Shown here piece by piece: positions 8,943 to 26,825 of a stretch of DNA of 44,251 nucleotides. Positions within the stretch are counted from its first letter, which is position 1, and every line of letters starts with the position of its first letter. The stretch is from an uncultured Selenomonadales bacterium (lineage in GTDB: Bacteria > Bacillota > Negativicutes > Acidaminococcales > Acidaminococcaceae). The notes beneath the pieces were generated by a model. It searched no databases, was not told the DNA's origin, and saw nothing but the letters and a program-made list of their open reading frames with translations. The translations under genes were made by a program, and so were the position numbers. The stretch lies in the NCBI GenBank assembly GCA_900315805.1, contig ONAN01000013.1:1-44251 (forward strand), given 5' to 3'.

Positions 8943-10427
8943 TCACAGGCTCACGCCGTCTTTGAAGATGGCGATGCCCCGGAATCCGTTCTGCTCATTT
9001 TTGGAACGTTTGCCGCCGGCCGTTTCCAGCACCAGCTGCAGCAGGCGCTGTCCGGCCTGGTCCAGCGTTTCGCCTTCCGCCACGGTACCGGCGTTGAAAT
9101 CAATCCAGTTGGCTTTACGTTCCGCCAGTTCCGAGTTGGAGGCGATCTTCAGCGTCGGGACGGGCGTGCCGAAGGGCGTGCCGCGGCCCGTGGTGAACAG
9201 GATCAGCTGGGCGCCGGCAGCGGTCAGGGCCGTACTGGAAATCAGGTCGTTGCCCGGCCCGTAGAGCAGGGAAAGTCCCGGCGTGCGGACGCGGTCACCG
9301 TAGCCGAGCACATCGGACACCGGCGCCGTACCGCCCTTTTGTACGCAGCCGCAGCTCTTGTCCTCGAGGGTCGAAATGCCGCCGGCCTTGTTGCCGGGAC
9401 TGGGATTTTCGTACACCACCGTATGGTGGGACAGGAAATAGTCCTTGAAGCCGTTCAGCATGGCCGCCGCCTTCTGAAAGACTTCCGGCGACACGCAGCG
9501 GTCGAGCAGCATCGATTCGGCGCCGAACATTTCCGGCACTTCCGTCAGGATCGTGCTGCCTCCTTCGGCCAGGAGCAGGTCGCTGAAACGGCCGACCGCC
9601 GGGTTCGCCGTAATGCCCGAGAGGCCGTCGGAGCCGCCGCACTTGAGGCCCACGACGAGTTTCGAAGCCGGCAGGGGCTGGCGCCGTAATTGGCCGGCAA
9701 AGGCCACGCATTCCTGCAGCAGCTTCCGCCCGGCGGCAAATTCGTCTTCCACCTGCTGGCACGTCAGGAAGCGGATCCGTTCCGGGTCGTAGTCTCCCAG
9801 CTCTGCCGCGAACTGTTCGTGCGTCAGGTTCTCACAGCCGAGATGCAGGACCAGCACGGCGCCCGCATTGGGATGACGGGCCAGGGCGGCCAGCAGTTTG
9901 CGTGTCTGCGCGTGGTCGGCGCCGCTCTGGCTGCAGCCGTAGGGATGGGGGAAGGCGTAAAGGCCGTCCACCGTGGTTCCCTGGAGCAGGTCCTGGTTGT
10001 CTGCCGCCAGTTTGCGCGCCACATCGTTCACGCAGCCGACGGTGGGCAGGATCCAGACTTCGTTGCGGATGCCCGCCTGCCCGTCCTTGCGCAGAAAGCC
10101 CTGGAACGTTTCCGCCGGACGCGGCGCCAGGCGGCAGTCCACGGGATGATAGGCATAGGCCACTTCGCCCGACAGGTTCGTCTGCATATTGTGCGTGTGC
10201 ACGTGGGCCCCGGCGGGAATATCCGCCACGGCATGGCCGATGGCGACGCCGTACTTGCGGACATCCTCCCCTTTCGCGATGGGCCGCAGGGCGACCTTAT
10301 GGCCCCGCGGGATATCTTCGAGGACCGTCACGGTGCCATTCCCCGCCTTGACGGTCTCCCCCTTGCGGAGCTGCCGCAGGGCCACGGCCACGGAATCGTT
10401 CGGATGAATCTGAATTACGTCGTTCAT
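8943..10427 (-). CDS. uxaA: Altronate dehydratase
   Basis: Dehydrates D-altronate to 2-keto-3-deoxygluconate (KDG) in the galacturonate branch; an iron- or manganese-dependent cytosolic enzyme. The 494-residue product carries the N-terminal SAF domain (about 1-75, with the HTHNM metal-site motif near 80) and the large UxaA domain with VGCVNDVARKL, CGGSDGLSGITANPAVG and the C-terminal TTGRGTPFG region. The length equals the usual 490-500. The start ATG 10427 has GAGGAGC upstream. It is the last gene of operon A, 13 bases after uxaB, which makes altronate for it. Confidence 0.95.
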   Translation of the reverse strand: MNDVIQIHPNDSVAVALRQLRKGETVKAGNGTVTVLEDIPRGHKVALRPIAKGEDVRKYGVAIGHAVADIPAGAHVHTHNMQTNLSGEVAYAYHPVDCRLAPRPAETFQGFLRKDGQAGIRNEVWILPTVGCVNDVARKLAADNQDLLQGTTVDGLYAFPHPYGCSQSGADHAQTRKLLAALARHPNAGAVLVLHLGCENLTHEQFAAELGDYDPERIRFLTCQQVEDEFAAGRKLLQECVAFAGQLRRQPLPASKLVVGLKCGGSDGLSGITANPAVGRFSDLLLAEGGSTILTEVPEMFGAESMLLDRCVSPEVFQKAAAMLNGFKDYFLSHHTVVYENPSPGNKAGGISTLEDKSCGCVQKGGTAPVSDVLGYGDRVRTPGLSLLYGPGNDLISSTALTAAGAQLILFTTGRGTPFGTPVPTLKIASNSELAERKANWIDFNAGTVAEGETLDQAGQRLLQLVLETAGGKRSKNEQNGFRGIAIFKDGVSL

Positions 10428-10440
10428 AGGTCGGCTCCTC

Positions 10441-11937
10441 TCAGAGGCAGGACGCGAACGCCTTTTCCGCCCCGTCCGCGCGGATGAGCTTCAAATCGCG
10501 GACCACGGCTTCTTCCAGCCCGGCCGTGCGCGTCAGGTCTTCGCCCCACATTTTTTCGTTCGTCAGGACGGCATGAACCAACGCTTCCGGCGTATCCGCC
10601 CGGTGCGCGAAATAGAAATCCAGTACCCAGGCGTCGTCCTGTACCTTGTACTCGTTGCCCTTCGGGCGCCGGCAGATGAGCCCGTCGGCCTCGCGGCGCT
10701 GCACGTCGCAGCTGTAGAACGCGATATAGGCCGCCAGGGACATGGTCAGGCAGACCGGCAGCCTGCCCTCAGCCGCCACGTAATCTTTGAAGGACGGCAT
10801 GTTGCGGGCCCGCCACTTCGACGTCGAATTCAGGGAAATGCTCATCAGCTGATGGTCGACGAAGGGGTTGTTGAAGCGGTCCGCCACGGCAGCGGCGAAA
10901 TCCTGCAGGTCCTGCTTGTCCAACGGCAGGGTCGGAATGACTTCCTCATAGAGCATCTTGTTCATGAAGCCCTTGATGGTCTCATTGTGCATACAGTCCC
11001 GTACGATGTCCTGTCCCGCCAGGTAGGAACCCAGGACGAAGCCCGTGTGGGCACCGTTCAGGATGCGTACTTTGCGTTTCTTGTAGGGAGCGACATCGGG
11101 CACGACCTGGACGAACTTGTCCAGCCCGGCCTTGTGGAAGGGCAGGCGGTCGTTCAGCGAAGCGTCGCCTTCGATGATCCAGATGCCGAAGCATTCACCC
11201 ACGTCCTTCAGGGCGTCCGTGTAGCCGTTGGCCTGATCCATGGCGGCGCTTTCGGCCTCGTCCTTGACACCGCCGGGGACGATGCGGTCCACCAGGGTGC
11301 TGCAGAACGTGTTTTCTTCGTTCACGTATTTCTTAAAGGCCTCGCCCAGCTTCCAGTCATCGATGTGGTGATTGACGCACTTCAGCAGTTCTTTGCCGTT
11401 GTTGTCGATGAGCTCGCAGCTCAGGATGATGAGGCCCGGCAGACTCTTTTTAAAACGGGCGTACAGGGCCTGGGTCAGTTTGCCGGGGAAACTCAGGCAG
11501 GGCCGGTCTTCCAGCTTCATGGCCGGGTCGTAGGCGATGCCCGCTTCCGTCGTGTTGGACGTGATGATCTCCAGGTCCTTCCCGCAGGCGGCCTCGATGA
11601 AGGCGTCGTAGTCCCGGTAGGGATTGATGCAGCGGCTCACGGACGAGATGACCCGCTTTTCGTCCACTTTGCGGCCGTTTTCGCTGCCCCGCAGATACAG
11701 GGTGTACAGCCCGTCCTGGGCGTTGATGACATCGGTCTTGCGGCCCCGCGGCGTCGGCTGTACGATGACCGCCTTGCCATTCCAGTCCGCTTTCTCATTG
11801 GCCTGGTCCAGAAAGTCCTCCACAAAGGCGCGCAGGAAATTGCCTTCGCCGAACTGGAGCACCTTTTCCGGGGCCTCCTTCTTCAAATATCCCTTATAGC
11901 CGAGCTTTGCCAGCGTCTTGAAGCTTAACTGATCCAT
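10441..11937 (-). CDS. uxaB: Tagaturonate reductase (mannitol dehydrogenase family)
   Basis: Reduces D-tagaturonate to D-altronate with NADH. The 498-residue protein has the N-terminal dinucleotide-binding signature VLQFGEGNFLRAFVEDFLD and the C-terminal long-chain polyol dehydrogenase domain with KKRKVRILNGAHT, whose Lys-Asn-His set is catalytic in this family. The length matches UxaB (about 480-500). The start is ATG 11937, preceded by AAAGGA. The longer open frame upstream to 12036 runs through a hairpin and has no ribosome site. It lies between the zinc dehydrogenase and uxaA, and a terminator-like hairpin separates it from the dehydrogenase. Confidence 0.93.
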   Translation of the reverse strand: MDQLSFKTLAKLGYKGYLKKEAPEKVLQFGEGNFLRAFVEDFLDQANEKADWNGKAVIVQPTPRGRKTDVINAQDGLYTLYLRGSENGRKVDEKRVISSVSRCINPYRDYDAFIEAACGKDLEIITSNTTEAGIAYDPAMKLEDRPCLSFPGKLTQALYARFKKSLPGLIILSCELIDNNGKELLKCVNHHIDDWKLGEAFKKYVNEENTFCSTLVDRIVPGGVKDEAESAAMDQANGYTDALKDVGECFGIWIIEGDASLNDRLPFHKAGLDKFVQVVPDVAPYKKRKVRILNGAHTGFVLGSYLAGQDIVRDCMHNETIKGFMNKMLYEEVIPTLPLDKQDLQDFAAAVADRFNNPFVDHQLMSISLNSTSKWRARNMPSFKDYVAAEGRLPVCLTMSLAAYIAFYSCDVQRREADGLICRRPKGNEYKVQDDAWVLDFYFAHRADTPEALVHAVLTNEKMWGEDLTRTAGLEEAVVRDLKLIRADGAEKAFASCL

Positions 11938-11984
11938 CTCATTATCCTTTCCGACAGGCCGGTGTCCTGTCCTTCTTTTCAGCC

Positions 11985-12051: not shown

Positions 12052-13077
12052 TTACCGGCTGAAGTCGATGCGGACCTTCAGCATTTCGCCCGCATGGGCG
12101 GAGAAATCGGCGAATGCTTTGGGGGCTTCGCTGAAGCCGTATTCGTTCGTGACGACCTTGTCCAGGGGCACCGTGCCCGTCTTGACCAGGTCGATCAGTT
12201 CCAGGAAGTCCTTCTTCAGGGCGTTGCGGGAACCGCATACGTTCAGTTCCTTCTTCTGCAGGAGCGTGAAGTTGAAGTCCAGGTTCTTCTTGCCCACGCC
12301 GATGAGCACCATATGGCCGCCGAAGGCTGCCGCGTCGATGCAGTTCTGGAACGTGGAAGGCAGGCCCACGGCCTCGATGGTCACATCGAACCCGTTGCCG
12401 TTGGTGATTTCGTTGCAGGCCTTGGTGAAGGCTTCTTCGGAAGAGTTCAGGATGGTGCCCGCCACGCCGAAATACTTTTTGGCGTAATCCAGTTTCGGCT
12501 GGGCCACGTCGGCGATGTAGACCTCGCCGCCCTTGGCTTTGGCGGAAATGGCGGCCAGCACGCCGATGGTGCCGGCGCCGACGATCAGCACCTTGTCGCC
12601 CTTCTTGATGTGGGCGCGGGACACGCCGTGCCAGCTGATGCAGAACGGTTCGATGGCGCACAGCAGGTTGGCCGGCAGGCCTTTGCCGTCGTAAATGCGC
12701 TCGATGGGCATGGTGATGTATTCGCAGAAGGCGCCGTCACGCTGGCAGCCCATGGTCTCGTTGCTCGTGCAGGCATTGACGATGCCGCGCTGGCAGGAGT
12801 AGCAGTGGCCACAGTTGAAATAGGGGTTGCACGTTACGACCATGCCCGGTTTCAGGCCCTGGTCGTTGTCATCGATTTCCACGATTTCCGCGGAAAATTC
12901 ATGGCCCGGAATACGGGGATAATCGAAATAGGCGAAGGTGCCCCGGTAGGAACTCAGGTCACTGCCGCAGATGCCGCCGTACAGCACCTTCAGCAGGGCT
13001 TCGCCGGGTTTGCGGACCGGTTTCGGGATATCACGGAACGTGACTTTGCCGGGTTCTTCGATATAGATTGCTTTCAT
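12052..13077 (-). CDS. Zinc-dependent MDR dehydrogenase, LgoD/RspB-like
   Basis: The 341-residue medium-chain dehydrogenase binds two zincs: the catalytic site with Cys37 and His59-Glu60 (GHE motif), and the structural site Cys89/Cys92/Cys95/Cys103. The NAD-binding motif VGAGTIG lies near 165. It resembles threonine/sorbitol dehydrogenase relatives, including LgoD (L-galactonate to D-tagaturonate) and RspB (L-gulonate to D-fructuronate). Sitting upstream of uxaB-uxaA, which consume tagaturonate, an aldonate oxidation role is attractive: it would let the operon use L-galactonate without a uronate isomerase. Substrate is inference. The ribosome site GAGGAGG is unusually far (13 bases) from ATG 13077. 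Confidence 0.85.
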   Translation of the reverse strand: MKAIYIEEPGKVTFRDIPKPVRKPGEALLKVLYGGICGSDLSSYRGTFAYFDYPRIPGHEFSAEIVEIDDNDQGLKPGMVVTCNPYFNCGHCYSCQRGIVNACTSNETMGCQRDGAFCEYITMPIERIYDGKGLPANLLCAIEPFCISWHGVSRAHIKKGDKVLIVGAGTIGVLAAISAKAKGGEVYIADVAQPKLDYAKKYFGVAGTILNSSEEAFTKACNEITNGNGFDVTIEAVGLPSTFQNCIDAAAFGGHMVLIGVGKKNLDFNFTLLQKKELNVCGSRNALKKDFLELIDLVKTGTVPLDKVVTNEYGFSEAPKAFADFSAHAGEMLKVRIDFSR

Positions 13078-13105: not shown

Positions 13106-14392
13106 TCAGTAAATCAGGTTGACCAGGAACAGCGTCAGGGGTTCGAAGTAGGTGATCAGGATCAGGTCGACCACCAGCATGATGTAGAACGGAATACCTT
13201 CCTTGATGAAGTCCGCCGTCGGGCACTTCGAAATGGAGCACGTGACGAACATCAGCGTACCCATCGGAGGCGACAGGGCGCCGATGGCATTGTTGAAGAT
13301 GTAGATCATGGCGAACTGGATTTCGTTGATGCCGTACTGTGCCGCAATGGGGGCCAGCAAAGGCACCAGGATGATCATGGAGGCATTGCCTTCGATGAAC
13401 ATGCCGACAATCAGCAGGAAGATGTTGACGGCAATGAGGAACACGAACTTGTTATCGATGGTCTGGAGCATCCATTCCGTCAGGGTCTGGGGCACGCGTT
13501 CGCGCGTGAGGATCCAGGAATAGACGGAAGCCGCGGACACGATCAGCATGATGGACGACGTGGAAGCGACCGTCTCTTTGAGGCTCGCCACCAGGTCCTT
13601 TGCCTTCATGTCACGGTACAGGAAACCCAGGAAGATGGCGTAGATGATGGCGACGGCACCGGCTTCCGTTGCCGTAAAGGCACCGACGCGGATACCGCCG
13701 ATGATGATGATCGGCAGGAGCAGCGGCAGGATGGCCGGCTTCAAGGCCTTCTTGACGCGTTCGCCCGTCAGTTTTTCCGTCGTCAGCTTGCCGTAATGGC
13801 GCTTTTTGGAAATGACGCCGACGAGGATCATCATGGAGATGCACAGCAGGCCGCCGACGCCGATGCCGGACACGAACAGCTTGCCGATGGAGACATTGGC
13901 GATACAGCCGTACAGGATCATCGCGATGCCGGGCGGAATCAGGGGCGTAATCATGGACGAAGCAGCCGTCACGACGCTCGAGAACGACAGGGAGAACCCT
14001 TTGCGCGTCATTTCGGGAATCAACATCTTCGCTTCCATGGCCGCGTCGGCCAGGTTGGAACCGGACAGGCCGCCCATGACCGTGGACAGCAGGACGTTGA
14101 CCTGTGCCAGGCCGCCGGGCAGGTGTGCCGTCACGACTTCACAGAAGTCCATGATGCGTTTCGTCACGCCCGTATAGTTCATGACGATGCCGGCGCATAC
14201 GAAGAACGGGATGGCCAGCAGGGAAATCTTTTCCGTGCCCAGGATCATCTGCTGGGCGAAAATGACGGAGTTGATGTCGGGGTTCAGCAAAAAGTAGACC
14301 AGGGAACCGCCGAGTACGGAAATGAACACAGGTACTTTTAAAAACAAAAGAACCAGCATGATCACAGAGGATAAAAGCAATACGTCACTCAC
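13106..14392 (-). CDS. dctM: TRAP transporter large permease (DctM), operon A
   Basis: The 428-residue DctM subunit has about 12 hydrophobic helices and is the ion-coupled transport channel of a tripartite ATP-independent periplasmic transporter. Family strings include GGLSGSNLADAAMEAKMLIPEM and PLIPPGIAMILYG, and the C-terminal APIAAQYGINEIQFAMIYIFNNAIGALSPPMGTLMF. The start GTG 14392 overlaps the end of dctQ by 8 bases, as is typical for coupled Q-M translation. Gap to the downstream dehydrogenase is 28 bases. The substrate is probably a hexuronate or aldonate, judging from the operon. Confidence 0.95.
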   Translation of the reverse strand: MSDVLLLSSVIMLVLLFLKVPVFISVLGGSLVYFLLNPDINSVIFAQQMILGTEKISLLAIPFFVCAGIVMNYTGVTKRIMDFCEVVTAHLPGGLAQVNVLLSTVMGGLSGSNLADAAMEAKMLIPEMTRKGFSLSFSSVVTAASSMITPLIPPGIAMILYGCIANVSIGKLFVSGIGVGGLLCISMMILVGVISKKRHYGKLTTEKLTGERVKKALKPAILPLLLPIIIIGGIRVGAFTATEAGAVAIIYAIFLGFLYRDMKAKDLVASLKETVASTSSIMLIVSAASVYSWILTRERVPQTLTEWMLQTIDNKFVFLIAVNIFLLIVGMFIEGNASMIILVPLLAPIAAQYGINEIQFAMIYIFNNAIGALSPPMGTLMFVTCSISKCPTADFIKEGIPFYIMLVVDLILITYFEPLTLFLVNLIY

Positions 14393-14894
14393 CGCTCGAT
14401 GCCGCCTCCTTTGCTTCGCTCTTCACGCCTTTGATGACGCTGTAGAAATAGCTGACGACCATATCGACGTAGGCCGGGATGGCGATCCCGTAAATCAGCC
14501 AGTAGGGAATCTTCATGATGCTCGTGGAACGGCCCGTGCGGAAGAACACCTCGACGAATCCGATGGTGTTGTACAGCAGGTAGCCGAGAACGACGACCAC
14601 GACGACCGAAATGAGGACCTGCACGATTTTCTGCAGGAAGCGCGGCAGCAGGTCGACGATCATCTCGATGGCCACATGGTTGCCCAGACGGAATGCGGCA
14701 CCGGCGGCCGCGAACACGATCCAGACCATGCAGGCCAGCTGTACTTCTTCCAGCCAGACGAACGGCTTCGATAAGAAGTAGCGCCAGATTACGCCCGCAA
14801 ATGTCAGCACAATCAGGATGGCCAGCACCACACCGGCGATGACCAGGTCCAGATTGCTGAGACAGCTTTTCAGGCTGAACTGATTTTCTTTCAT
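14385..14894 (-). CDS. dctQ: TRAP transporter small permease (DctQ), operon A
   Basis: A 169-residue protein with four membrane helices, the small TRAP subunit that joins the binding protein and DctM. Typical segments are KPFVWLEEVQLACMVWIVFAAAG and NHVAIEMIVDLLP. The start is ATG 14894, with GAGGAGC 9 bases upstream. The open frame extends upstream to 14966 but passes through the intercistronic hairpin and lacks a ribosome site. It ends 8 bases into dctM. Confidence 0.93.
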   Translation of the reverse strand: MKENQFSLKSCLSNLDLVIAGVVLAILIVLTFAGVIWRYFLSKPFVWLEEVQLACMVWIVFAAAGAAFRLGNHVAIEMIVDLLPRFLQKIVQVLISVVVVVVLGYLLYNTIGFVEVFFRTGRSTSIMKIPYWLIYGIAIPAYVDMVVSYFYSVIKGVKSEAKEAASSGE

Positions 14895-14940
14895 TTCTAA
14901 AAGCTCCTCTTGTTGGTTGTAACGGGATGTAAAGCGCAGG

Positions 14941-14972
14941 ATTGCGATGCCCGCGTCGGCGGGCACCGCAAT
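14941..14972 (-). repeat. Intercistronic stem-loop between dctP and dctQ, operon A
   Basis: ATTGCG.TGCCCGC and GCGGGCA.CGCAAT form a 14-base stem with a four-base loop. On the transcribed minus strand the one non-Watson-Crick position becomes a G-U pair. There is no T-run, so it is more likely an mRNA-stabilising or processing hairpin protecting the dctP message than a terminator. Operon B has hairpins at the same place. Confidence 0.7.
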
Positions 14973-15026
14973 GAGGATTCTTGCATAGAACTGTCCCTTA
15001 CGCTTCAGCAGCCGCGGGAAACCGGA

Positions 15027-16064
15027 TTACTGCATGGCCTTGCGGACGGTTTCGTACAGACCGTCGGACCAGCCGAATTCCTTGCCCTTGGCATAGAATG
15101 CTTTGGATTTTTCCTTGAAGCCGGCCAGGACTTCTGCAGACGGAACGACGACCTTGACGCCTTCCTTCTTCATCTTTTCCAGGTAGTCCTTTTCGGTCTT
15201 CTGCTGGATGTCGTTGTTGATCTTGCCGGCCTCTTCGGCGGTTTCCAACAGCCACTGCTGCTGTTCCTTGGTCAGGCTGGAGAACCATTTCTCGGAAACG
15301 ACCCAGGTCGTGAAGTTCTTGACGTGGCCGTCCAGGATCAGGTACTTGGCAACTTCCTGCAGTTTTCTGCCGTACAGGGTGCCCAGCGGGTTTTCAGCAC
15401 CTTCGATGGTGCCGCTCTGCAGGGCCTGGTACACATCGCCCAGAGGCATGCCCGTGGCCGTGGCGCCCAGTGCGTTGAAGCCTTCCGTCTGGATCTTGTT
15501 GCCCGGAACGCGGATCTTCATGCCTTTCAGGTCTTCCACTTTGTTGACCGGTTTCGTGGTCAGGGTGTGGCGTTCGCCGTAAATCCAGTTGGAGGCCAGC
15601 AGTTTCAGGCCTTTCTTTTCCAGCTTGCCTTCCTGGTCCTTATACCACTGGGACTTGGTCAGCTTCCAGCACTGATCCCAGTTGTCGAACAGGAACGGTC
15701 CGAAGACGATGCCGAAATCCGGCACGCCGTAGTCGGCATAGAAGGCACCGTCGGCCAGGGTGCAGACGTTTTCGCCCATCAGCATGGAATCGATAAGGGC
15801 GGATTTCTTGCCCAGCTGGGAATCCGGATAGGTTACGATTTCCATGGTGCCGTTGGATTTCTTCTTCAGGATTTCCTTCGCCTTTTCCCAGGCAACGCCG
15901 ACCGGTTCGGTCTTGCTGTTTTCATACGCTACGCGCAGGACGATCTTTTTGCCGTCTTTGGCGGGAGCGGCCTTCTTGTCCGCCTTTTTATCACCGCCGC
16001 AGCCTGCCAGGGCCAATGCCAGCAAACTGCCTGCCACACCGATTGCCAATGCCTTCTTGTTCAT
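15027..16064 (-). CDS. dctP: TRAP transporter substrate-binding lipoprotein (DctP), operon A
   Basis: Captures the substrate outside the membrane and delivers it to DctQM. The 345-residue precursor has a lipoprotein signal ending LALAGC with lipid-anchored Cys22, then a Lys-rich linker and the DctP domain. The conserved block KGMKIRVPGN..GFNALGATATGMPLGDVYQAL (about 150-185) contains the Arg that binds the substrate carboxylate and the family signature. Start ATG 16064 lies 8 bases after AAGGAGG; the upstream extension to 16127 lacks a ribosome site. Probably binds a hexuronate or aldonate, by context. Confidence 0.95.
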   Translation of the reverse strand: MNKKALAIGVAGSLLALALAGCGGDKKADKKAAPAKDGKKIVLRVAYENSKTEPVGVAWEKAKEILKKKSNGTMEIVTYPDSQLGKKSALIDSMLMGENVCTLADGAFYADYGVPDFGIVFGPFLFDNWDQCWKLTKSQWYKDQEGKLEKKGLKLLASNWIYGERHTLTTKPVNKVEDLKGMKIRVPGNKIQTEGFNALGATATGMPLGDVYQALQSGTIEGAENPLGTLYGRKLQEVAKYLILDGHVKNFTTWVVSEKWFSSLTKEQQQWLLETAEEAGKINNDIQQKTEKDYLEKMKKEGVKVVVPSAEVLAGFKEKSKAFYAKGKEFGWSDGLYETVRKAMQ

Positions 16065-16159
16065 ACTGAAATTCCTCCTTTGATTTCCTTTTGCATCCTG
16101 TGTTATAAAGCGCGGGTGCTGCGCCAATCTGCCTTGTGTTATGGCCGGACTGCGGAGCG

Positions 16160-16831
16160 TCAGAAGCTGCCGCCCGCCCTGCCCCAGGACCGGACATCCG
16201 TCGTCATGAGTGTCACGGCCGCTTCCCGGGAGTGTTCCAGGTGGGTCCGCATGGCCTCTTCCGCCGCGGCGGAGTCCTTTTTCAGGAGCGCCTCGAGGAT
16301 GGCCTCGTGTTCCCGGACCGTCGCCTGCAGCCGGTATTCCAGCCGTTCGCCGGAAAGGATGCGCACGCGGTGGTTCTGCCCGAAGATGCGCTGCATCAGT
16401 TCCATCAGATACGGGTTGCCGCAGGTTTCGATGAACAGGTTATGCAGCTCGCTGTCCAGGTCGTACTCGTTCAAATCGTGTTCCAGCGCTGCGCTGGCGT
16501 TGTTCTTCACGAGCATCTCCTCCAGCTTGGCCGCCGGAATAAGGTGTCCGTATTTACGCACGACAGGCGGTTCCACGAGGAACCGTACTTCGTAAATGGC
16601 GTTGATGTCTGCCAGCGTGATGTCGTTCACCAGGATTCCCCGCTTCGGCAGGATCGTGATCAGCCGTTCCTGCTCCAGCTTGTTCAGGGCCTCCCGGATA
16701 GGCGTGCGGCTGGCGTCGATGACCTTGATCAGGTCTGCTTCCACCAGGAACTGTCCCGGCAGGAACTCGCAGCGGATGATCCGCTCCTTGATGTAGTTGT
16801 AGGCCTTATCCTTCAGGTTTCTTTCCACCAT
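16160..16831 (-). CDS. GntR-family transcriptional regulator, FCD type, operon A
   Basis: The 223-residue protein has an N-terminal winged helix (about 1-72, with SRTPIREALNKLEQERLITILPKRGILV, the typical recognition helix and wing) and a C-terminal FCD ligand-binding domain (about 85-205) with the Asp/His metal-site pattern (D..LHNLFIETCGNPYL). FCD regulators usually sense sugar acids and repress their catabolic genes. It is the first gene of operon A, so it is probably autoregulated and acts at the TGTATACA palindromes between it and eda. Start ATG 16831 has GGCGGAG upstream. The sensed ligand is unknown; an aldonate or hexuronate is likely. Confidence 0.92.
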   Translation of the reverse strand: MVERNLKDKAYNYIKERIIRCEFLPGQFLVEADLIKVIDASRTPIREALNKLEQERLITILPKRGILVNDITLADINAIYEVRFLVEPPVVRKYGHLIPAAKLEEMLVKNNASAALEHDLNEYDLDSELHNLFIETCGNPYLMELMQRIFGQNHRVRILSGERLEYRLQATVREHEAILEALLKKDSAAAEEAMRTHLEHSREAAVTLMTTDVRSWGRAGGSF

Positions 16832-16918
16832 ATCCGCGCTCCGCCTTTGTCAGGAATCCGTAAAGTTCCCGCTACTTGTTCGGGACAATTCCGTTCCCGA
16901 CTCTTGTTGCATACATCT

Positions 16919-16926: not shown

Positions 16927-16929
16927 TTA

Positions 16930-19079: not shown

Positions 19080-20675
19080 TCAGTTTTCCTTTGTCACGTA
19101 CTTCTTCAAGGTAGCGCGCACCGCGCCGGGTCCGGCCATCAACTCCCGGAAATAGGCTTCCACCGTTTCCGCCAGGCCCGTGTTGTAGAGGTTGCTGCCG
19201 AAAATGGCCGTGTTGCTCAGGATTCCCTGCAGGGCGGCATGTACATCGGCCGGCTCACCCAATTGTACGCCGGACAGCTGGCTGCGCAGCTGGTCGAGCA
19301 GCGGGTCCGGGCTCAGCTCAAACCGCTTTCCCGTGTCATCCACACCAAGCAGGTAGCGGCACCAGCCGGCAATGGCGAGCGGAATGAAACGCAGCTGCCC
19401 GGCTTCTTTGCCGTAGGCCTTGATGGTTTCCCCGTAGCGGATGCCGACCTTCTGCGACGTATCGCAGGCGATGCGTTGCGGCGTATCGGGAATGGCGGGA
19501 TTCGGAAAACGGACTTCGAGGCACTGCTGCAGGAAAGCCTGCGGCGAAAGCACGCCCGGATCCGTAACCACCTTCATCCCTTCCTGGCCGATGTGCCGTA
19601 CCAGGCCTGCCAGTTCGGGATCCTTCATTTCGTCGGCAATCAGCGTATAACCCAGCAGGCAGCCGTACACCGCCAGGGCCGTGTGCAGCGGGTTCAGGCA
19701 GGTGCAGACTTTCATGCGCTCCACCTTTTCCACCGTGGCGCGGTCCGTGAAGATGACCCCCGCTTCTTCCAGCGGCGGGCGGCCGTTTGCGAAGGTATCT
19801 TCCACCACCAGGTATTCCGTCTTTTCCGCATTGACGAAGGGAGCGAAGAAACCACCGTGGTCATTGCGGATGATGCCCATGTCTTCCAGGCCCTGTTTTT
19901 CCAGCACGGCCTGGATGGCCGGCGAAGGACGGGGCGTGATCTTGTCGATCATGGACCAGGGACAGGTGACGTGCTTCTCCAGGTACGCCGGGAACGCAGC
20001 AGGTACGAACCCCTTCTTCTCCCAATAGCGGGTCATTTCCCGTACCGAGGCCTGAACGACGGCACCGTTGTGGGAGCAGTTGTCGAGGCTCAGCAGCGTG
20101 ACCGGCAGGCTGCCGGCCTGAAACCGTTCCAGCAGCAGGGCGCTCAGTTTCCCGATGAAGGTGGACGGGCTGGCCGGCCCGCCTTCCAGATCCTGCAGCG
20201 CCGCGTCCGCGTAGGACCCGTCCGGCTTGTGCAGCTGGTAGCCTTTTTCCGTGACCGTGAAGCTCACAATGGCCAGTCCCGGATCCCGGAAAATGGTCCG
20301 GAGCCGCTGCCAATCGGCCGTTTTCGGGTCGCTCGCCAGCGCTTCCCCGACACTGCCGATGACCGTCTCGTCCACGCTCTGGTCGGGATTCATGGTCATG
20401 AGCATGTTCAGGTTGTCATGTTTTTTATAGACTTTTTCAATCAGGTCGGCAAAATTCGTTTCCACCGCCGTGATGCCGTAGGACACGAGGCCCTTGTCCA
20501 GCAGGCGCTGCTGCAGGGCGGCAATGAAGGCGCGGAAAATGTTGCCGGGGCCGAAGTGGACCCAGCGGGGATGGCGGTACGTTTCCTCCATCATGGCCGC
20601 GTGGTCGAAAGAGGGAACGGCAATCCCATGTTCTTTCCAAAACGGATTCGGAAGATTCTTTTCCAATAACTTCAT
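19080..20675 (-). CDS. uxuB: Fructuronate reductase (mannitol dehydrogenase family)
   Basis: Reduces D-fructuronate to D-mannonate with NADH. The 531-residue protein shows WVHFGPGNIFRAF at the nucleotide-binding N-terminus, CPWSMIDKITPRPS in the middle and the C-terminal catalytic region CTCLNPLHTALAVYGCLLGY. It is longer than E. coli UxuB (486). Mannitol or other polyol dehydrogenase activity is possible on sequence alone, but its position 36 bases after uxuA makes the fructuronate role the best call. Start ATG 20675 lies after GAGGAAGGAAG; the longer open frame to 20696 would skip this site. Last gene of operon B. Confidence 0.9.
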   Translation of the reverse strand: MKLLEKNLPNPFWKEHGIAVPSFDHAAMMEETYRHPRWVHFGPGNIFRAFIAALQQRLLDKGLVSYGITAVETNFADLIEKVYKKHDNLNMLMTMNPDQSVDETVIGSVGEALASDPKTADWQRLRTIFRDPGLAIVSFTVTEKGYQLHKPDGSYADAALQDLEGGPASPSTFIGKLSALLLERFQAGSLPVTLLSLDNCSHNGAVVQASVREMTRYWEKKGFVPAAFPAYLEKHVTCPWSMIDKITPRPSPAIQAVLEKQGLEDMGIIRNDHGGFFAPFVNAEKTEYLVVEDTFANGRPPLEEAGVIFTDRATVEKVERMKVCTCLNPLHTALAVYGCLLGYTLIADEMKDPELAGLVRHIGQEGMKVVTDPGVLSPQAFLQQCLEVRFPNPAIPDTPQRIACDTSQKVGIRYGETIKAYGKEAGQLRFIPLAIAGWCRYLLGVDDTGKRFELSPDPLLDQLRSQLSGVQLGEPADVHAALQGILSNTAIFGSNLYNTGLAETVEAYFRELMAGPGAVRATLKKYVTKEN

Positions 20676-20711
20676 GAAGCACGCTTCCTTCCTCAATGAC
20701 GGAATCCCGCC

Positions 20712-21788
20712 TTACTTGCTGTTTTCCCGGCAGATGGCGTCCCACAGGCCGCACAGGTAGTTGGCCCCGAGGGCGCGGTCGAACAGCCCGTAGCCGGGGC
20801 GTCCCTTTTCATCCCAGATCATGCGGCCATGATCCGGACGGACCGGGCCTTCGTAACCGACTTCCCACAGGGCGCGCATGATGTCGTAAATATCCAGGGA
20901 ACCAAATTTCGATTTATGGGCCACTTCGTTGAACACCCACGGTTCGTGCACCTGGATGTTACGGACATGCATGAAGCCGATGCGGTCCATGCGCCCGAAC
21001 TTGCGGACAATGTGGGGAATGTCGTTGTCCCTGTTGGAACCCAGGGAACCCGTGCAGACGCAGAGGCTGTTGGACGGGCTGTCCACCAGCTTCACGATCT
21101 TGTCCAGGTCCCGTTCGTTTTTGACGATGCGGGGCAGGCCGAAGACGCTGCGCGGCGGATCGTCGGGATGGATGGTCATGCGGATGCCCAGTTCTTCGCA
21201 GGCCGGGATGATGGCTTTCAGGAAATAGCCCAAGTTGGCCCGCAGGTCGTCCTCCCCCATGCCTTCGTAGGCATCGAACAGACGGCCCAGTTCGCCCAGG
21301 CGTTCCGGCTCCCAGCCCGGCAGCACATAGCCGTTGCTGTGGCTCAGGATCTCGTCTGCCATCTGGCGCGGCGACTTGCCTTCGATGACATGATAGTCGA
21401 AAGCCAGGGCGGTTGAACCGTCGTAGAGCGGTTTCGCCAGATCCGTCCGGGTCCAGTCGAAAATGGGCATGAAGTTGTAGCAGACGACGTTGACGCCGCA
21501 TTTGGCCACGTTCTTCAGGGATTCGATATAGTTTTCAATGTAGCGGTCCCGCGTGGGCAGGCCCAGTTTGATGTCCTCGTGGACGTTGATGCTTTCCACC
21601 GTTTCGTAGGAAAGTCCCGCCGCCCGGGCCGCATCGGCCTGGGCCGCGATTTCCTCCACGGGCCAGACTTCCCCGACCGGAACATCGTAAAGGGCCCCTA
21701 CGACGCCGTCCATGCCGGGAATCTGCTTGATCTGCTTCAAAGTAATCGTATCGTCTTTTTCGCCATACCAGCGAAAGGTCATCTTCAT
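20712..21788 (-). CDS. uxuA: Mannonate dehydratase
   Basis: Dehydrates D-mannonate to KDG. The 358-residue protein starts MKMTFRWYGEKDDTITLKQI, the typical UxuA N-terminus, and carries the metal-site segments CVCTGSLGS, HVRNIQVH and RPDHGRMIW. It belongs to the xylose-isomerase-like TIM barrels and normally needs Fe(II) or Mn(II). It is slightly shorter than the E. coli enzyme (394) but matches the Gram-positive form. Start ATG 21788 has GAGAGGAG upstream. It lies between the operon B regulator and uxuB, with an 18-base gap to the regulator. Confidence 0.96.
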   Translation of the reverse strand: MKMTFRWYGEKDDTITLKQIKQIPGMDGVVGALYDVPVGEVWPVEEIAAQADAARAAGLSYETVESINVHEDIKLGLPTRDRYIENYIESLKNVAKCGVNVVCYNFMPIFDWTRTDLAKPLYDGSTALAFDYHVIEGKSPRQMADEILSHSNGYVLPGWEPERLGELGRLFDAYEGMGEDDLRANLGYFLKAIIPACEELGIRMTIHPDDPPRSVFGLPRIVKNERDLDKIVKLVDSPSNSLCVCTGSLGSNRDNDIPHIVRKFGRMDRIGFMHVRNIQVHEPWVFNEVAHKSKFGSLDIYDIMRALWEVGYEGPVRPDHGRMIWDEKGRPGYGLFDRALGANYLCGLWDAICRENSK

Positions 21789-21806: not shown

Positions 21807-22571
21807 TCAGCCTTTCTGGCCGCCGTAGACAGCACGCAGGAAATCCACGCCCAGATGCTGCGCCGAGGCCCGGATCTGCGTCCCTTTGAACATGTAGGGA
21901 TATTTCTGCTGCAGTTCCTTCTCCTCGTAATCCAGCTTCTGGAGGTGATTGGACAAAGCCTTGGCCACTCCGTCCGCATCACCGGCCCGCACGGCATCCA
22001 GGATGAGGCCGTGCTGTTCCAGGTTCAGGGACATTTGCTGGACCTGGCTGCACAACAAACGCATACGGCGGTAGAACCCGCCGCTCTGCTGCATGGTCCG
22101 GAAACAGAAGTCCCGGCCCATGGCCACATAAAAGTATTCGTGGAACGCGTCGTCCAGATCCAGGAACGAACGATAGTCCCCGTCGCCGTGCTGCAGCCAG
22201 TCCACCTGCCGCTGCAGCAGCCGTTCGGCCTCCTGCAGCTGTTCCGGTGTATGGCGGACGGCAAAGTCCCGGGTCACGGCCGTTTCCACGGCCAGGCGCA
22301 TATACCGTTCCTGCGCCTCGATATCCAGGTCAATCAGGGAAATCATGATGCCGCGCTGCGGCAGAATCGTCACCAGGCCTTCCTGCTGCAGCCGCATGAC
22401 CGCATCCCGCACAGGAGACCTGCCTGCGTGATAGTATTCACACAGGTTGCGGATGCTGAGTTCCGTCCCCGGGCAGACATACAGGTCCAGAATGGCCTTG
22501 CGCAGCACCGGATAGATTTCCATGTTGTCCAGCTGCCGCTCCTGAACCCGTTCCGTCAGGTTTTCTTCCAT
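21807..22571 (-). CDS. GntR-family transcriptional regulator, FCD type, operon B
   Basis: The 254-residue protein has a winged-helix N-terminus (about 15-85, with GRSPVRDAVMRLQQEGLVTILPQRGIMIS) and an FCD effector domain (about 100-225) whose LDDAFHEYFYVAMGRDFC stretch supplies metal and ligand-site residues. ExuR/UxuR-type uronate repressors belong to this class. It sits inside the operon between the isomerase-like gene (gap 4) and uxuA (gap 18), so it is probably autoregulated. The 12-3-12 palindrome on the operon B promoter is its likely target. The ligand is unknown; fructuronate or mannonate fits the pathway. Confidence 0.92.
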   Translation of the reverse strand: MEENLTERVQERQLDNMEIYPVLRKAILDLYVCPGTELSIRNLCEYYHAGRSPVRDAVMRLQQEGLVTILPQRGIMISLIDLDIEAQERYMRLAVETAVTRDFAVRHTPEQLQEAERLLQRQVDWLQHGDGDYRSFLDLDDAFHEYFYVAMGRDFCFRTMQQSGGFYRRMRLLCSQVQQMSLNLEQHGLILDAVRAGDADGVAKALSNHLQKLDYEEKELQQKYPYMFKGTQIRASAQHLGVDFLRAVYGGQKG

Positions 22572-23694: not shown

Positions 23695-24984
23695 CTACAT
23701 GCTCGTGCCGTACACCAGGTTCGGAAGGAACAGGACGGCTTCCGGGAAGAACACCATGACGAGTACCGTACCCGCAATGGCGATGAACAGCGGAATGGCG
23801 TATTTCGTGGTCTCTTCCACCTTGCAGTGCATGATGTCGGAACACGTGTAAAGGGCGACGCCGACAGGTGGTGTCGAGCAGCCCATCGTGACGATGGTCA
23901 TCATGATGATGCCGAAATGGACCGGGTCAATGCCGTACCGGGTGATGACCGGAACCAGGATCGGCGTGACGATAAGGGTGATGACCGTCGTTTCCATAAA
24001 CATGCCGAACACGGTCAGCATGAGGATCAGCAGGAACAGCAGGGCGTACTTGCTGTCCGTCATGGCGATCAGGGCATTGGTCAGCGTGCGGGGCAGCTGG
24101 TCGAATACGACGCCGTAGCTGAAGATACCGGAAAAGGCCAGGATCATGGTGATGACCGACAGGTCTTTGACGCTGTCCACAACGCATTTACGGAACTTCT
24201 CCATGTTCATTTCCTTGTAGATGAAGACACCGACAAAGAGTGCGTAGAACACGGCGAAGGCGCCGGATTCGGAAGGCGTCATGACGCCGAAGCGGATCAG
24301 GACGATCAGCAGGATGGGGAACATGAGGGCCCAGATACTGTCAATGCAGGCCTTCACAATCGTCTTCAAAGGATACGGATGGGCATGGTCCGGAACATAG
24401 CCGTAATGATGGGCCGACCAGGAAGTGGCGACCATCATCAGGATGCACATGACGATACCGGGCATGATGCCGGCCACAAAGAGGCGGCCGATGGATACTT
24501 CGCCGATGGTCCCGTACAGGATCAGGCCCATGGACGGCGGAATCGTGGCCACAATCAGGCCGGTCAGGCAGTTGATGGCGGCAGCCCAGCCGGGGGCGTA
24601 GCCGCGCTTCGTCATTTCCGGTCCCAGAATACGGCATTCCATCGCCGCGTCGGCGACGGCAGAACCGGAAACGCCGCCCATCAGGGTGGACAGGACGACG
24701 GATACCTGGCCGATGGAGCCCCACATATGGCCCGTCAGGACGTTGGAAAGTTTGACCAGGCGTGTCGTCACGCCCGTATTGTTCATCAGGTTGCCTGCGA
24801 AAATGAAGAGCGGAATCGCAAGCATCGTAAAAGACTGGGTCGTGGATAACGACTTCTGGACCAGGATGGTCCAAGGAATTTCAGGCCGCATCAGGAAGAA
24901 CGAGAAGCCTGACGTGGCAATGGCGAAAGCTACCGGCATTCCCAGGAACAGGAGCACCAGGAAGAACGCAATGGAATATAACAT
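23695..24984 (-). CDS. dctM: TRAP transporter large permease (DctM), operon B
   Basis: A 429-residue DctM protein with about 12 membrane helices. GGVSGSAVADAAMECRILGPEM and IATIPPSMGLILYGTIGE are the family signatures, and the C-terminal HFGIIMMTIVTMGCSTPPVGVALY is also typical. It is clearly a paralogue of the operon A subunit, not a recent copy, since the two differ throughout. Start ATG 24984 has GAGAGGAG upstream. Gap to dctQ is 60 bases. Confidence 0.95.
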   Translation of the reverse strand: MLYSIAFFLVLLFLGMPVAFAIATSGFSFFLMRPEIPWTILVQKSLSTTQSFTMLAIPLFIFAGNLMNNTGVTTRLVKLSNVLTGHMWGSIGQVSVVLSTLMGGVSGSAVADAAMECRILGPEMTKRGYAPGWAAAINCLTGLIVATIPPSMGLILYGTIGEVSIGRLFVAGIMPGIVMCILMMVATSWSAHHYGYVPDHAHPYPLKTIVKACIDSIWALMFPILLIVLIRFGVMTPSESGAFAVFYALFVGVFIYKEMNMEKFRKCVVDSVKDLSVITMILAFSGIFSYGVVFDQLPRTLTNALIAMTDSKYALLFLLILMLTVFGMFMETTVITLIVTPILVPVITRYGIDPVHFGIIMMTIVTMGCSTPPVGVALYTCSDIMHCKVEETTKYAIPLFIAIAGTVLVMVFFPEAVLFLPNLVYGTSM

Positions 24985-25044
24985 GTTGATCTCCTCTCAC
25001 AAAACCGGCGGCCGGGCGTTCTGTGCGAACCCCGCGCCGCAGCC

Positions 25045-25518
25045 TCACTCAGCGTCTGCCTTGCCGCGGACGTCCCCGATGAATTTCTCAATCAGGCTCT
25101 GCAGCATCAGGACGGAACCCGTGGGAACCGCCAGCGTGCACCAGGCGTAACTGATGGACAGCGTGTTGAATGAACGGTGCCAGCTTTGCGAAACCAGCTT
25201 GAATCCATACACGACGAGGAGCAGGATGAATAAGACCATGAAGATATCGAAAATGATGGTCAGGGCCTTGCGCAGCCCTTTCGGAAGTTTCTGCTCGATA
25301 ATGTCGATCCGGATCAGATGTCTGTGGCGGATGATGACGTCGGAACCGAGAAAAGTCAGCCAGCCGAACGCCAAAAGGGACGCGTCCCCCGCCCAGTTGA
25401 TGGGATGACCCACCGTCCGCGCGATTGCGGAAATGAAGATTAATGTCGCAATCACGCACAACAGGGTGGCCGCTATATTCTCTTCCACCCGTAAGATGAC
25501 TGCTGATATTTTTTGCAT
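25045..25518 (-). CDS. dctQ: TRAP transporter small permease (DctQ), operon B
   Basis: A 157-residue four-helix membrane protein with NWAGDASLLAFGWLTFLGSDVIIRHRHLIRIDII, the DctQ signature. Start ATG 25518 has AAGGG upstream at acceptable spacing. The 8-codon upstream extension lacks a better ribosome site. It is separated from dctP by about 150 bases containing two strong hairpins. Confidence 0.92.
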   Translation of the reverse strand: MQKISAVILRVEENIAATLLCVIATLIFISAIARTVGHPINWAGDASLLAFGWLTFLGSDVIIRHRHLIRIDIIEQKLPKGLRKALTIIFDIFMVLFILLLVVYGFKLVSQSWHRSFNTLSISYAWCTLAVPTGSVLMLQSLIEKFIGDVRGKADAE

Positions 25519-25577
25519 CGTGATATCCCTTCTTGAAACCAATTCCCTGCGGATAAAAAGTCCCTATACGAAGAATG

Positions 25578-25605
25578 GGATATAGCCTGCTGACAGGCTA
25601 TATCC
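25578..25605 (-). repeat. Intercistronic stem-loop 1 between dctP and dctQ, operon B
   Basis: GGATATAGCCTG-CTGA-CAGGCTATATCC, a perfect 12-base stem with a four-base loop and no following T-run. Probably an mRNA-stability or processing element that keeps the binding-protein message more abundant than the permease message. Confidence 0.7.
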
Positions 25606-25621
25606 GCATCCTTGATTCCGG

Positions 25622-25644
25622 AATCCCGCGCAGGTATGCGGGAT
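25622..25644 (-). repeat. Intercistronic stem-loop 2 between dctP and dctQ, operon B
   Basis: ATCCCGC and GCGGGAT form a 7-base stem with a loop of 9 bases, 26 bases after the dctP stop codon in the direction of transcription. Together with stem-loop 1 it forms a tandem hairpin block. Confidence 0.55.
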
Positions 25645-25670
25645 GTAAGGCTGTTACGCTTCCGGTCCGG

Positions 25671-26696
25671 TTATTTCGTTTTGCCGATTTCCTTGTAGAG
25701 TTCTGCACGCAGTTTGGTGTATCCCAGTTCGTCGTAAACAGGATCTACGGCCTTCTTGAAGGCAGCCAGATCGGACGGTACGGAAACCTTCAGGCCGGCT
25801 TTGACCATCTTTTCTTCGTCGGCGTTTGCTTCCTTGATGACGTCCTTTGCGGTTTCACGGCCGACTTCGTCCGCCGTTTCAACCAACAGTTTCTGCAGGT
25901 CGGCCGGCAGGGTGTTGAACCACTTGCTGCCGCAAATCAGGCCCTGCATCAGCTGGAAATGTTCGGTCTTGGTCATGTATTTGGCCACTTCGAAGGTCTT
26001 GGACGGATAAGCGGAAGTGTTCTGTACTTCGCAGCCGTCGATGGCCTTGGACTGAATGCCGTTATAAACTTCGCCCCAGGACATGGAGACCGGGGTAGCG
26101 CCCATAGCCGCTACGGACTTGGTCGTTACGGCCTGTCCGATGGTGCGGATACGCTGGCCTTTCAGGTCGGCCGGGCTGTTGATCGGTTTGTTCGTGAAGA
26201 AGCTGCGCGGGCCGTCGTAGTAAGCGAAGGACAGGACCTTGACGCCGTGTTCCTTATCCAGCTTGTCGACCCAGTTCTTGAAGGTCTTCGTCTGCGTCAC
26301 TTTGTAGCATTCGTCGTAGTTGTCCGCAAAGTAACCCATCATAAGGATGGAGAAATCCTTTACGTACTGGCCCATACGGGAAGCATCGGTGTTGACGGCC
26401 ACGTTGGCACCCTGGATACCCTGTTCCAGCATGTCTTCGTCGCTGCCCAGCTGGCCGGCCGGATAAACCGTGACCTTCAGTCTGCCCTTGGAGCGCTTGT
26501 TCAGCTCATCAGCCAGTTTCTGGTAGTTGCGGGTGATCAGCGCCTGTTCCGTCTGGGACGTGCCGATCTTCAGTTCGTAGACCTTGCCGTCTCCGCCGGC
26601 AGCCTTGGTGTCCTTCTTGTCACCGCCGCCGCAGCCGCCTGCCAGGGCAGCCATCAGACCGAGACATGCAGCAGCCATCATCCATTTTTTTGCCAT
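25671..26696 (-). CDS. dctP: TRAP transporter substrate-binding lipoprotein (DctP), operon B
   Basis: A 341-residue periplasmic binding lipoprotein. The signal ends ALAGGC with the lipid-anchored Cys22, followed by a Gly/Asp/Lys linker. The DctP domain includes NSPADLKGQRIRTIGQAVTTKSVAAMGATPVSMSWGEVYNGIQ, the ligand-binding block with the conserved Arg. First gene of operon B, and the start of the message driven by the promoter with the palindromic operator. Start ATG 26696; the 18-codon upstream extension lacks a signal-peptide start. The expected substrate is a sugar acid, by context. Confidence 0.95.
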   Translation of the reverse strand: MAKKWMMAAACLGLMAALAGGCGGGDKKDTKAAGGDGKVYELKIGTSQTEQALITRNYQKLADELNKRSKGRLKVTVYPAGQLGSDEDMLEQGIQGANVAVNTDASRMGQYVKDFSILMMGYFADNYDECYKVTQTKTFKNWVDKLDKEHGVKVLSFAYYDGPRSFFTNKPINSPADLKGQRIRTIGQAVTTKSVAAMGATPVSMSWGEVYNGIQSKAIDGCEVQNTSAYPSKTFEVAKYMTKTEHFQLMQGLICGSKWFNTLPADLQKLLVETADEVGRETAKDVIKEANADEEKMVKAGLKVSVPSDLAAFKKAVDPVYDELGYTKLRAELYKEIGKTK

Positions 26697-26790
26697 TTCC
26701 TTCACACTCCTGTTTTCAATTTGCGGATAGGAAACATTATCCTGCCGCATTCGGCAGGCTTTCGTAAGAACTTCCGCAGCGTTCTTTGTT

Positions 26791-26817
26791 ACTGATATAT
26801 TACACTAATATATCAGT
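26791..26817. promoter_or_regulatory. Perfect 12-3-12 palindromic operator on the operon B promoter
   Basis: ACTGATATATTA and TAATATATCAGT are exact inverted copies separated by CAC. The site sits on the -10 and the spacer, so a bound protein would block RNA polymerase. The best candidate ligand-controlled repressor is the FCD regulator encoded in this operon (21807-22571). Confidence 0.7.
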
Positions 26818-26825
26818 TTAGACAA
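26797..26825 (-). promoter_or_regulatory. Promoter of operon B (dctPQM-manA-like-gntR-uxuAB)
   Basis: Minus-strand -35 TTGTCT (26820-26825), 17-base spacer, -10 TAATAT (26797-26802). The operator palindrome covers the -10 and almost all of the spacer. Confidence 0.7.

What the first reader, a model, noticed from the sequence alone, without database searches (positions are those of the whole stretch)
8943..26825. Two TRAP-fed sugar-acid operons around eda-kdgK, with no uronate isomerase
uxaB/uxaA and uxuB/uxuA, each with its own TRAP importer and FCD-type regulator, flank a central eda-kdgK unit. UxaC, the first enzyme for glucuronate and galacturonate, is missing from the whole island. Together with the LgoD/RspB-like dehydrogenase in operon A, this suggests the island is built for imported aldonates (L-galactonate, L-gulonate, D-mannonate, D-altronate) or keto-uronates, not aldoses. 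That would be an unusual diet for an amino-acid-fermenting Negativicute.
Basis: partly seen in the sequence, partly recalled or inferred. Interest (0 to 1): 0.75.

Follow-up and report, generated by a model that had tools for sequence, protein, structure and literature searches.

The report
Sugar-acid island with new uronate isomerase
A bacterium of the Selenomonadales group carries two neighbouring gene sets, each with its own importer, that would take up two kinds of sugar acid and break both down to one shared intermediate, and one of the genes, from a family labelled a mannose-phosphate enzyme elsewhere, is predicted to be a previously unassigned first enzyme for a uronic acid, likely mannuronic acid.

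Summary
Operons uxaA-uxaB-dehydrogenase-TRAP-FCD and uxuB-uxuA-FCD-X-TRAP flank eda-kdgK. No uxaC was found in the held genome (98% complete) or in 13 others of the genus. Operon A matches the known L-galactonate type (LgoD-like dehydrogenase, UxaB, UxaA, TRAP), so aldonate import is likely there. It keeps all seven residues mutated in the Salmonella PMI structures but scores below the ManA cut-off. Its family sits beside a related TRAP importer in gut-type Clostridia, beside uxuA in three parts of its tree, and in alginate-lyase loci of Psychromonas, Vibrio, Defluviitalea and Clostridium. I propose X is a mannuronate- (less likely glucuronate-) to-fructuronate isomerase feeding UxuB and UxuA. 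Against: 42 of 48 X genomes also have uxaC; the uxuA-linked ones mostly lack ManA, so X could be a PMI; 58 of 79 X loci show neither uxuA nor TRAP; no substrate was tested. The genome also has KduI with a TctCBA importer, so missing uxaC does not mean no uronate use. The double island recurs in Clostridium vitabionis.

The parts
8943..10427 (-). UxaA, altronate dehydratase (operon A)
   Evidence: Pfam GD_AH_C/GD_AH_second/SAF; 53% identity over 495 aligned columns to E. coli UxaA
10441..11937 (-). UxaB, tagaturonate reductase (operon A)
   Evidence: NF002969 551 bits, cut-off 359
12052..13077 (-). Zn-dependent MDR dehydrogenase, LgoD/RspB-like by context (operon A)
   Evidence: 32% identity to E. 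coli LgoD over 339; best NCBIfam model NF007489 (Zn-dependent oxidoreductase, recalled as the RspB type) 176.6 bits, under its cut-off of 376
13106..16127 (-). TRAP importer A: DctM, DctQ, DctP
   Evidence: Pfam DctM, DctQ, DctP; DctP nearest to 4ovt (235 bits) and 4o8m (183 bits)
16160..16831 (-). GntR/FCD regulator A
   Evidence: Pfam GntR + FCD
16918..17013 (.). two TGTATACA palindromes between regulator A and eda, candidate operator (inferred)
   Evidence: sites at 16919 and 17005; a sigma-70-like match for eda at 17085-17112, 11 of 12, in a scan whose 7 hits equal the 6.7 expected by chance
17207..17845 (+). Eda/KdgA, KDPG aldolase
   Evidence: PF01081; TIGR01182 252 bits, cut-off 156
17889..18986 (+). 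KdgK, PfkB-family KDG kinase
   Evidence: PF00294; NCBIfam models matched, all under their cut-offs
19080..20696 (-). UxuB, likely fructuronate reductase (operon B)
   Evidence: Mannitol_dh domains; under the fructuronate reductase cut-off; adjacent to uxuA
20712..21788 (-). UxuA, mannonate dehydratase (operon B)
   Evidence: PF03786 491 bits; TIGR00695 389 bits, cut-off 200
21807..22571 (-). GntR/FCD regulator B
   Evidence: Pfam GntR + FCD
23695..26750 (-). TRAP importer B: DctM, DctQ, DctP
   Evidence: Pfam DctM, DctQ, DctP; DctP nearest to 2hpg and 4p1e
26791..26817 (.). palindrome upstream of dctP B (12-base arms, 3-base centre), candidate operator (inferred)
   Evidence: perfect arms; in the relative L003 the inner 11 base pairs stay complementary through a matched change on both sides

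Best explanation
The island is a double sugar-acid catabolic module in which operon A likely imports L-galactonate-type aldonates (dehydrogenase to tagaturonate, UxaB to altronate, UxaA to KDG), operon B likely imports a hexuronate, most probably D-mannuronate, which the PMI-like gene X is predicted to isomerise to D-fructuronate for UxuB and UxuA, and both would end in KDG for the shared KdgK and Eda. Shown: the genes and their order, the missing uxaC, X's predicted PMI fold with conserved isomerase active-site residues, and the recurring linkage of X's family to TRAP, uxuA/uxuB and alginate lyases. Inferred: every substrate and reaction of X, the dehydrogenase, UxuB and both TRAP systems, and co-regulation through the two FCD proteins. 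The chemistry fits: PMI turns the mannose configuration at C2 into the ketose, and the same step on D-mannuronate gives D-fructuronate, UxuB's substrate (general biochemistry, not tested here).
For: Genes confirmed. uxaC not found. X is a coherent family: 696 homologues at E<=1e-3 among 7,997 scored candidates; in 34 aligned members K102, Q113, H115, K131, E133, H195, E205, R215 are invariant, and they align with K86, Q97, H99, K132, E134, H255, E264, R274 of E. coli ManA; all but Q97 are residues mutated in Salmonella PMI entries listed. In 79 loci (flanks as held) a relative of DctP B (E<=1e-10) occurs in 15, UxuA in 8 (about 0.28 expected, a rough figure from assumed 41 copies in 48 genomes of 4.2 Mb), UxuB family in 10. 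On a tree of 75 X proteins uxuA linkage needs at least 3 changes and TRAP-without-uxuA linkage at least 3. Alginate lyases lie in at least 6 of 79 loci: PL7 in Psychromonas L041, L042, L075; an AlyF-like PL6 in Vibrio L069; a CBM96 alginate-lyase part and a PL6 in Defluviitalea L078; a PL17-like protein in Clostridium L017. The double island (with X, without eda-kdgK) recurs in Clostridium vitabionis. Operon A's gene set equals published L-galactonate loci.
Against: UxaC is present in 42 of 48 genomes that carry X, C. vitabionis included, so X is not generally a stand-in for UxaC; of the 9 genomes with X linked to uxuA (own one included) 4 lack UxaC. Class I ManA over its cut-off is found in 23 of 34 X genomes, but in only 1 of the 8 uxuA-linked ones among them, and not in the own genome; three Psychromonas genomes also lack PF01050, so there X might be the only PMI. 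58 of 79 X loci show neither uxuA nor a DctP B relative in the flanks held (only 42 of 79 have 9 kb on both sides); some have GH92, GH2-like, GH42-like, sulfatase or Nramp-like neighbours, pointing to other sugars in other branches. The Verrucomicrobiota alginate grower of PMC13274419 lists UxaC with UxuA and UxuB in its uronate metabolism table, so UxaC may serve there (passage). Alginate in the diet of the window's bacterium is unproven; its genome was not searched for alginate lyases. UxuB and the dehydrogenase score below curated cut-offs.
Confidence: 0.5

Rival explanations
1. One reading: both operons serve imported aldonates (L-galactonate, L-gulonate, D-mannonate, D-altronate); X is incidental. 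D-mannonate or L-gulonate enters through TRAP B and is used by UxuA directly or after the operon-A dehydrogenase makes fructuronate.
For: H. influenzae runs such a TRAP-fed L-gulonate/D-mannonate pathway with GulD, UxuB, UxuA (PMC5788505, passages); no uxaC; an MDR dehydrogenase exists in operon A.
Against: Operon B has no dehydrogenase of that type but an isomerase-like protein, 4 and 30 bp from its neighbours on the same strand; X stands with TRAP B without such a dehydrogenase in Lachnospiraceae-type loci; the gulonate-binding 4pbq is not among the 60 of 96 matches shown for DctP B.
Confidence: 0.22
2. X is simply the organism's phosphomannose isomerase (for GDP-mannose or mannose use) that was captured into a sugar-acid operon.
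For: PMI fold and the tested PMI active-site residues; no other class I ManA in the own genome and none over the cut-off in C. vitabionis or in 7 of 8 uxuA-linked genomes.
Against: X scores 70.6 bits against the ManA cut-off of 116.2, and the best E-value among 34 relatives (3.2e-26) would by the same scale be about 92 bits (my estimate); 23 of 34 X genomes have a separate ManA; five genus relatives match neither X (a query that does find ManA in four others) nor PF01050 beyond one weak hit, so the genus does not seem to need a PMI; linkage to TRAP, uxuA and alginate lyases.
Confidence: 0.15
3. The uronate is D-glucuronate rather than D-mannuronate: X is a plain non-orthologous replacement of UxaC.
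For: Glucuronate is far commoner in plant-fed guts (general knowledge); its isomerisation gives the same D-fructuronate; uxaC is missing here and in 3 other uxuA-linked X genomes.
Against: PMI relatives act on the mannose configuration; X accompanies alginate lyases in at least 6 of 79 loci; 42 of 48 X genomes keep UxaC.
Confidence: 0.2
4. Uronates enter through KduI elsewhere in the genome, which doubles as the uronate isomerase, and the island only processes its products.
For: kduI - SDR - tctCBA - dgoK-like cluster on contig C23; E. coli KduI facilitates galacturonate and glucuronate conversion (PMC3578941, abstract).
Against: That cluster has its own importer and could make KDG by itself; it does not explain X or the two TRAP systems.
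Confidence: 0.12

Closest known systems
L-galactonate/L-fuconate loci of Halomonas and Chromohalobacter salexigens (LgoD, UxaA, UxaB or UxaF, TRAP), PMC5507952
   Same: Operon A has the same set: LgoD-like dehydrogenase, UxaB, UxaA, TRAP importer.
   Different: No fuconate genes seen; paired with a second, uxu-type operon and eda-kdgK; dehydrogenase only 32% identical to E. coli LgoD.
Haemophilus influenzae L-gulonate pathway (GulPQM, GulD, UxuB, UxuA, KdgK, KdgA), PMC5788505
   Same: TRAP + UxuB + UxuA + KdgK + Eda, with no UxaC step in the pathway.
   Different: Operon B has the PMI-like X and no GulD-type gene.
E. coli hexuronate pathway (UxaC, UxaB, UxaA, UxuB, UxuA)
   Same: Same reductases and dehydratases converging on KDG.
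   Different: No UxaC; TRAP importers instead of ExuT.
Class I phosphomannose isomerase ManA (Salmonella, B. subtilis)
   Different: Under the ManA family cut-off; distinct N-terminal NRVRRNYxGG motif and family-specific arginines; sugar-acid operon context.
Thermotoga UxaE route and KduI-KduD route
   Same: Other ways round UxaC; a homologue of UxaE and a KduI exist elsewhere in this genome.
   Different: The UxaE homologue lies among LPS genes, not near the island.

Membership tests
L-galactonate catabolic locus (operon A) | tagaturonate reductase UxaB | tested here: met
   NF002969 551 bits over cut-off 359
L-galactonate catabolic locus (operon A) | altronate dehydratase UxaA | tested here: met
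   Pfam, 53% to E. coli UxaA
L-galactonate catabolic locus (operon A) | L-galactonate 5-dehydrogenase LgoD | tested here: inconclusive
   MDR family, 32% to LgoD; no NCBIfam cut-off reached
L-galactonate catabolic locus (operon A) | importer that binds L-galactonate | not testable with these tools
   DctP A nearest 4ovt and 4o8m; ligands recalled, not read
TRAP-fed L-gulonate pathway (operon B) | L-gulonate 5-dehydrogenase in the operon | tested here: not met
   No Zn-dehydrogenase among the operon B genes; X is the extra gene. One lies in operon A
TRAP-fed L-gulonate pathway (operon B) | UxuA | tested here: met
   TIGR00695 389 bits over cut-off 200
TRAP-fed L-gulonate pathway (operon B) | fructuronate reductase UxuB | tested here: inconclusive
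   Right family and place, but 153 bits against a cut-off of 603
Canonical UxaC uronate pathway | uronate isomerase UxaC (PF02614) | tested here: not met
   0 matches in own genome; none in 14 held genomes of the genus
Class I mannose-6-phosphate isomerase (TIGR00218 equivalog) | curated family score | tested here: not met
   70.6 bits, cut-off 116.2
Class I mannose-6-phosphate isomerase superfamily | fold and metal/catalytic residues | tested here: met
Class I mannose-6-phosphate isomerase superfamily | substrate mannose 6-phosphate | not testable with these tools
   no assay
KduI family | PF04962 match of X | tested here: not met
   X has no PF04962 match at E<=0.001; the genome's KduI is a different gene

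The most novel reading that the evidence does not exclude
X founds a family of D-mannuronate ketol-isomerases, an enzyme for which I found no assigned gene, spread over Bacillota, Spirochaetota, Pseudomonadota, Bacteroidota, Verrucomicrobiota and others and labelled as mannose-6-phosphate isomerase; with UxuB and UxuA it gives saturated mannuronate (such as alginate chain ends) a route to KDG that needs neither UxaC nor the DEH pathway.
Probability: 0.33. Interest if true: 0.75.

Novelty: new variant of a known kind. Interest (0 to 1): 0.57.

Why it matters
The parts are known pathway kinds, but gene X would fill a gap. The two reviews looked at give only the unsaturated-monomer (DEH) route for alginate in the passages read (PMC6353982; PMC8286568, where 'fructuronate' and 'isomerase' occur 0 times in the main text), and a search for 'mannuronate isomerase' in the held open-licence library finds 0 papers; older or subscription papers were not searched. 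If right, many proteins now named mannose-6-phosphate isomerase (several such names) are misnamed, and uronate use can no longer be ruled out by the absence of uxaC. It also shows a two-importer island shared by a Negativicute and a Clostridium.

Tried and rejected
X as a general UxaC replacement: rejected as stated, since 42 of 48 X genomes keep UxaC. X as ordinary ManA: lowered, not excluded. UxaE homologue in the own genome as a link between the two operons: set aside because it sits in an LPS locus with O-antigen ligase, GT25 and heptosyltransferase genes. KduI as the missing isomerase: kept as a rival. Ligands of 4o8m/4ovt: titles were cut before the ligand, 0 papers in the library name them, the Vetting 2015 paper is not held, so they stay recalled. 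A clean empty insertion site in genus relatives was looked for and not shown: the 546-aa flank gene lies beside ThrRS in the window's arrangement in 3 of 14 genomes and divergent from it in 8; the other 3 could not be judged. G057 has uxaA at a contig end without a UxuA or X match. Neighbour annotation was partial: 53 of 836 neighbouring ORFs were run against Pfam/NCBIfam, hand-picked, so the 6-of-79 alginate-lyase count is a lower bound and not blinded; lyase-type proteins of these loci used as queries found no further loci. 5 of 79 loci were left out of the tree (stops or short). For UxaC 50 of 79 X loci were given and 48 genomes were held, for UxuA 48, for ManA 34, chosen by hand. PL6/PL17 calls rest on solved-structure matches; the second L017 protein matches dermatan-sulfate epimerase best and oligoalginate lyase next, so it is not counted as an alginate lyase.
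Full report
Observation. The two operons and the central unit are as described. Gaps inside operon A are -8 to 114 bp and inside operon B 4 to 128 bp, consistent with co-transcription (inferred). No UxaC match was found in the held genome or in any of the 14 held genomes of the genus, some of them incomplete drafts. UxuA is in 22 of 120 relatives, and 8 of those 22 show no UxaC, so uxuA without uxaC is uncommon rather than unique. In the genus, UxuA and a full-length X occur only in the window's genome and one other; that other one appears to be the assembly behind locus L003, an uncultured Selenomonadales bacterium (same contig coordinates).

Context of the family. One scan of GTDB genomes returned 79 loci. 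Within the flanks held (9 kb on both sides in 42 of 79), a DctP B relative occurs in 15 of 79, DctM B in 14, UxuA in 8, UxuB in 10, Eda and KdgK in 1; 58 of 79 have neither UxuA nor a DctP B relative. In Lachnospiraceae-type genomes X stands with a TRAP system whose DctP is 65-75% identical to DctP B, behind a DctP-like protein, a histidine kinase and a response regulator, often with a LacI-type regulator. In Psychromonas it stands with UxuA, UxuB and an FCD regulator in 5 loci, 3 of them with a PL7 alginate lyase. In Vibrio renipiscarius it stands near a PL6 related to alginate lyase AlyF (595 bits); in Defluviitalea phaphyphila with TRAP genes, a CBM96 alginate-lyase part (411 bits to 7vbo) and a PL6; in Clostridium sp. 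CF012 with a PL17-like protein (E 3e-10 to AlgL17; Pfam Alginate_lyase 22.5 bits, cut-off 22.2) and a heparinase-II/III-type protein. The tree of 75 X proteins needs at least 3 changes for uxuA linkage and 3 for TRAP-without-uxuA linkage; gains and losses cannot be told apart. The estimate of 0.28 expected uxuA-bearing loci is rough and assumes average genome sizes. Other branches have GH92, GH2-like, GH42-like, sulfatase or Nramp-like neighbours, so the family need not be uniform in function.

Why mannuronate. PMI acts on the mannose configuration; the same reaction on D-mannuronate yields D-fructuronate, and UxuB/UxuA take that to KDG (general biochemistry). Alginate consists of D-mannuronate and L-guluronate (PMC6353982 and PMC8286568, passages). 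Lyases leave the saturated residue of each chain's non-reducing end outside the DEH pathway (general chemistry). X near lyases and beside uxuA/uxuB could salvage it. In the window's bacterium alginate use is not shown; D-glucuronate is the alternative. No gene for saturated mannuronate is named in the passages read, and 'mannuronate isomerase' gives 0 papers; older biochemical reports may exist outside the library.

Results against. 42 of 48 X genomes have UxaC, C. vitabionis with two. Of the 8 uxuA-linked genomes only 1 has ManA over the cut-off; the own genome has none and only a marginal PF01050 match. X may therefore be, or double as, a PMI. Yet 23 of 34 X genomes have ManA as well, and five tested genus relatives match neither X nor PF01050 beyond one weak hit, though the same X query finds ManA-like genes in four other genus members. 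A Verrucomicrobiota alginate grower lists UxaC with UxuA and UxuB in its uronate table (PMC13274419, passage).

Operon A. The gene set equals published L-galactonate loci. The dehydrogenase is only 32% identical to E. coli LgoD and could act on L-gulonate too. DctP A is closest to 4ovt and 4o8m, recalled as L-fuconate and L-galactonate complexes.

Island and genome. C. vitabionis has dctPQM B - X - uxuA - uxuB - regulator - dehydrogenase - dctPQM A - uxaB - uxaA (49-83% identity, regulators 27-32%), so the two operons travel together, there without eda-kdgK. A third sugar-acid unit on another contig is kduI, an SDR (over the cut-off of a gluconate 5-dehydrogenase model, 492 of 369, and under that of KduD, 229 of 339), tctCBA and a dgoK-like kinase, so the organism looks like a scavenger of free sugar acids (inference). 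A palindrome with perfect 12-base arms sits upstream of dctP B at 26791-26817; in L003 its inner 11 pairs persist through a matched change. Two TGTATACA sites sit between regulator A and eda.

Verdict. Ordinary pathway kinds, one new likely enzyme.

Noticed in passing
window 29285-29476 (-): glmS ribozyme (RF00234, 59.5 bits) upstream of glmS at 27391-29220.
   Followed up: no
L117 (G000 contig C23) 10255-16312: kduI, an SDR dehydrogenase, tctC, tctB, tctA and a dgoK-like kinase in a row: a third importer-linked sugar-acid unit in the same genome.
   Followed up: partly
L116 (G000 contig C33) 9214-10605: A UxaE (tagaturonate epimerase) homologue, 211 bits, sits among O-antigen ligase, GT25 and heptosyltransferase genes.
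   Followed up: no
L038, L040, L045, L049, L051, L052, L054, L055, L056, L061: In 10 of 79 X loci a clustered Nramp-like membrane protein lies in the neighbourhood; the one representative scanned scores far below MntH (79.5 of 430 bits), so it may carry a metal or something else. Unexplained.
   Followed up: no
L004, L005, L008, L010, L011, L014, L060: A histidine kinase, a response regulator and a DctP-like protein stand directly upstream of X: a likely sensor that uses a TRAP-type binding protein.
   Followed up: no
window 6964-8604 (+): 546-aa protein beside ThrRS; a close copy (about 70% identity or more) is in 13 of 14 genomes of the genus, and a second relative of 32-38% identity in all 14; function not examined.
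   Followed up: no
window 26791-26817: Long palindrome upstream of dctP B whose arms changed together in the relative L003.
   Followed up: partly
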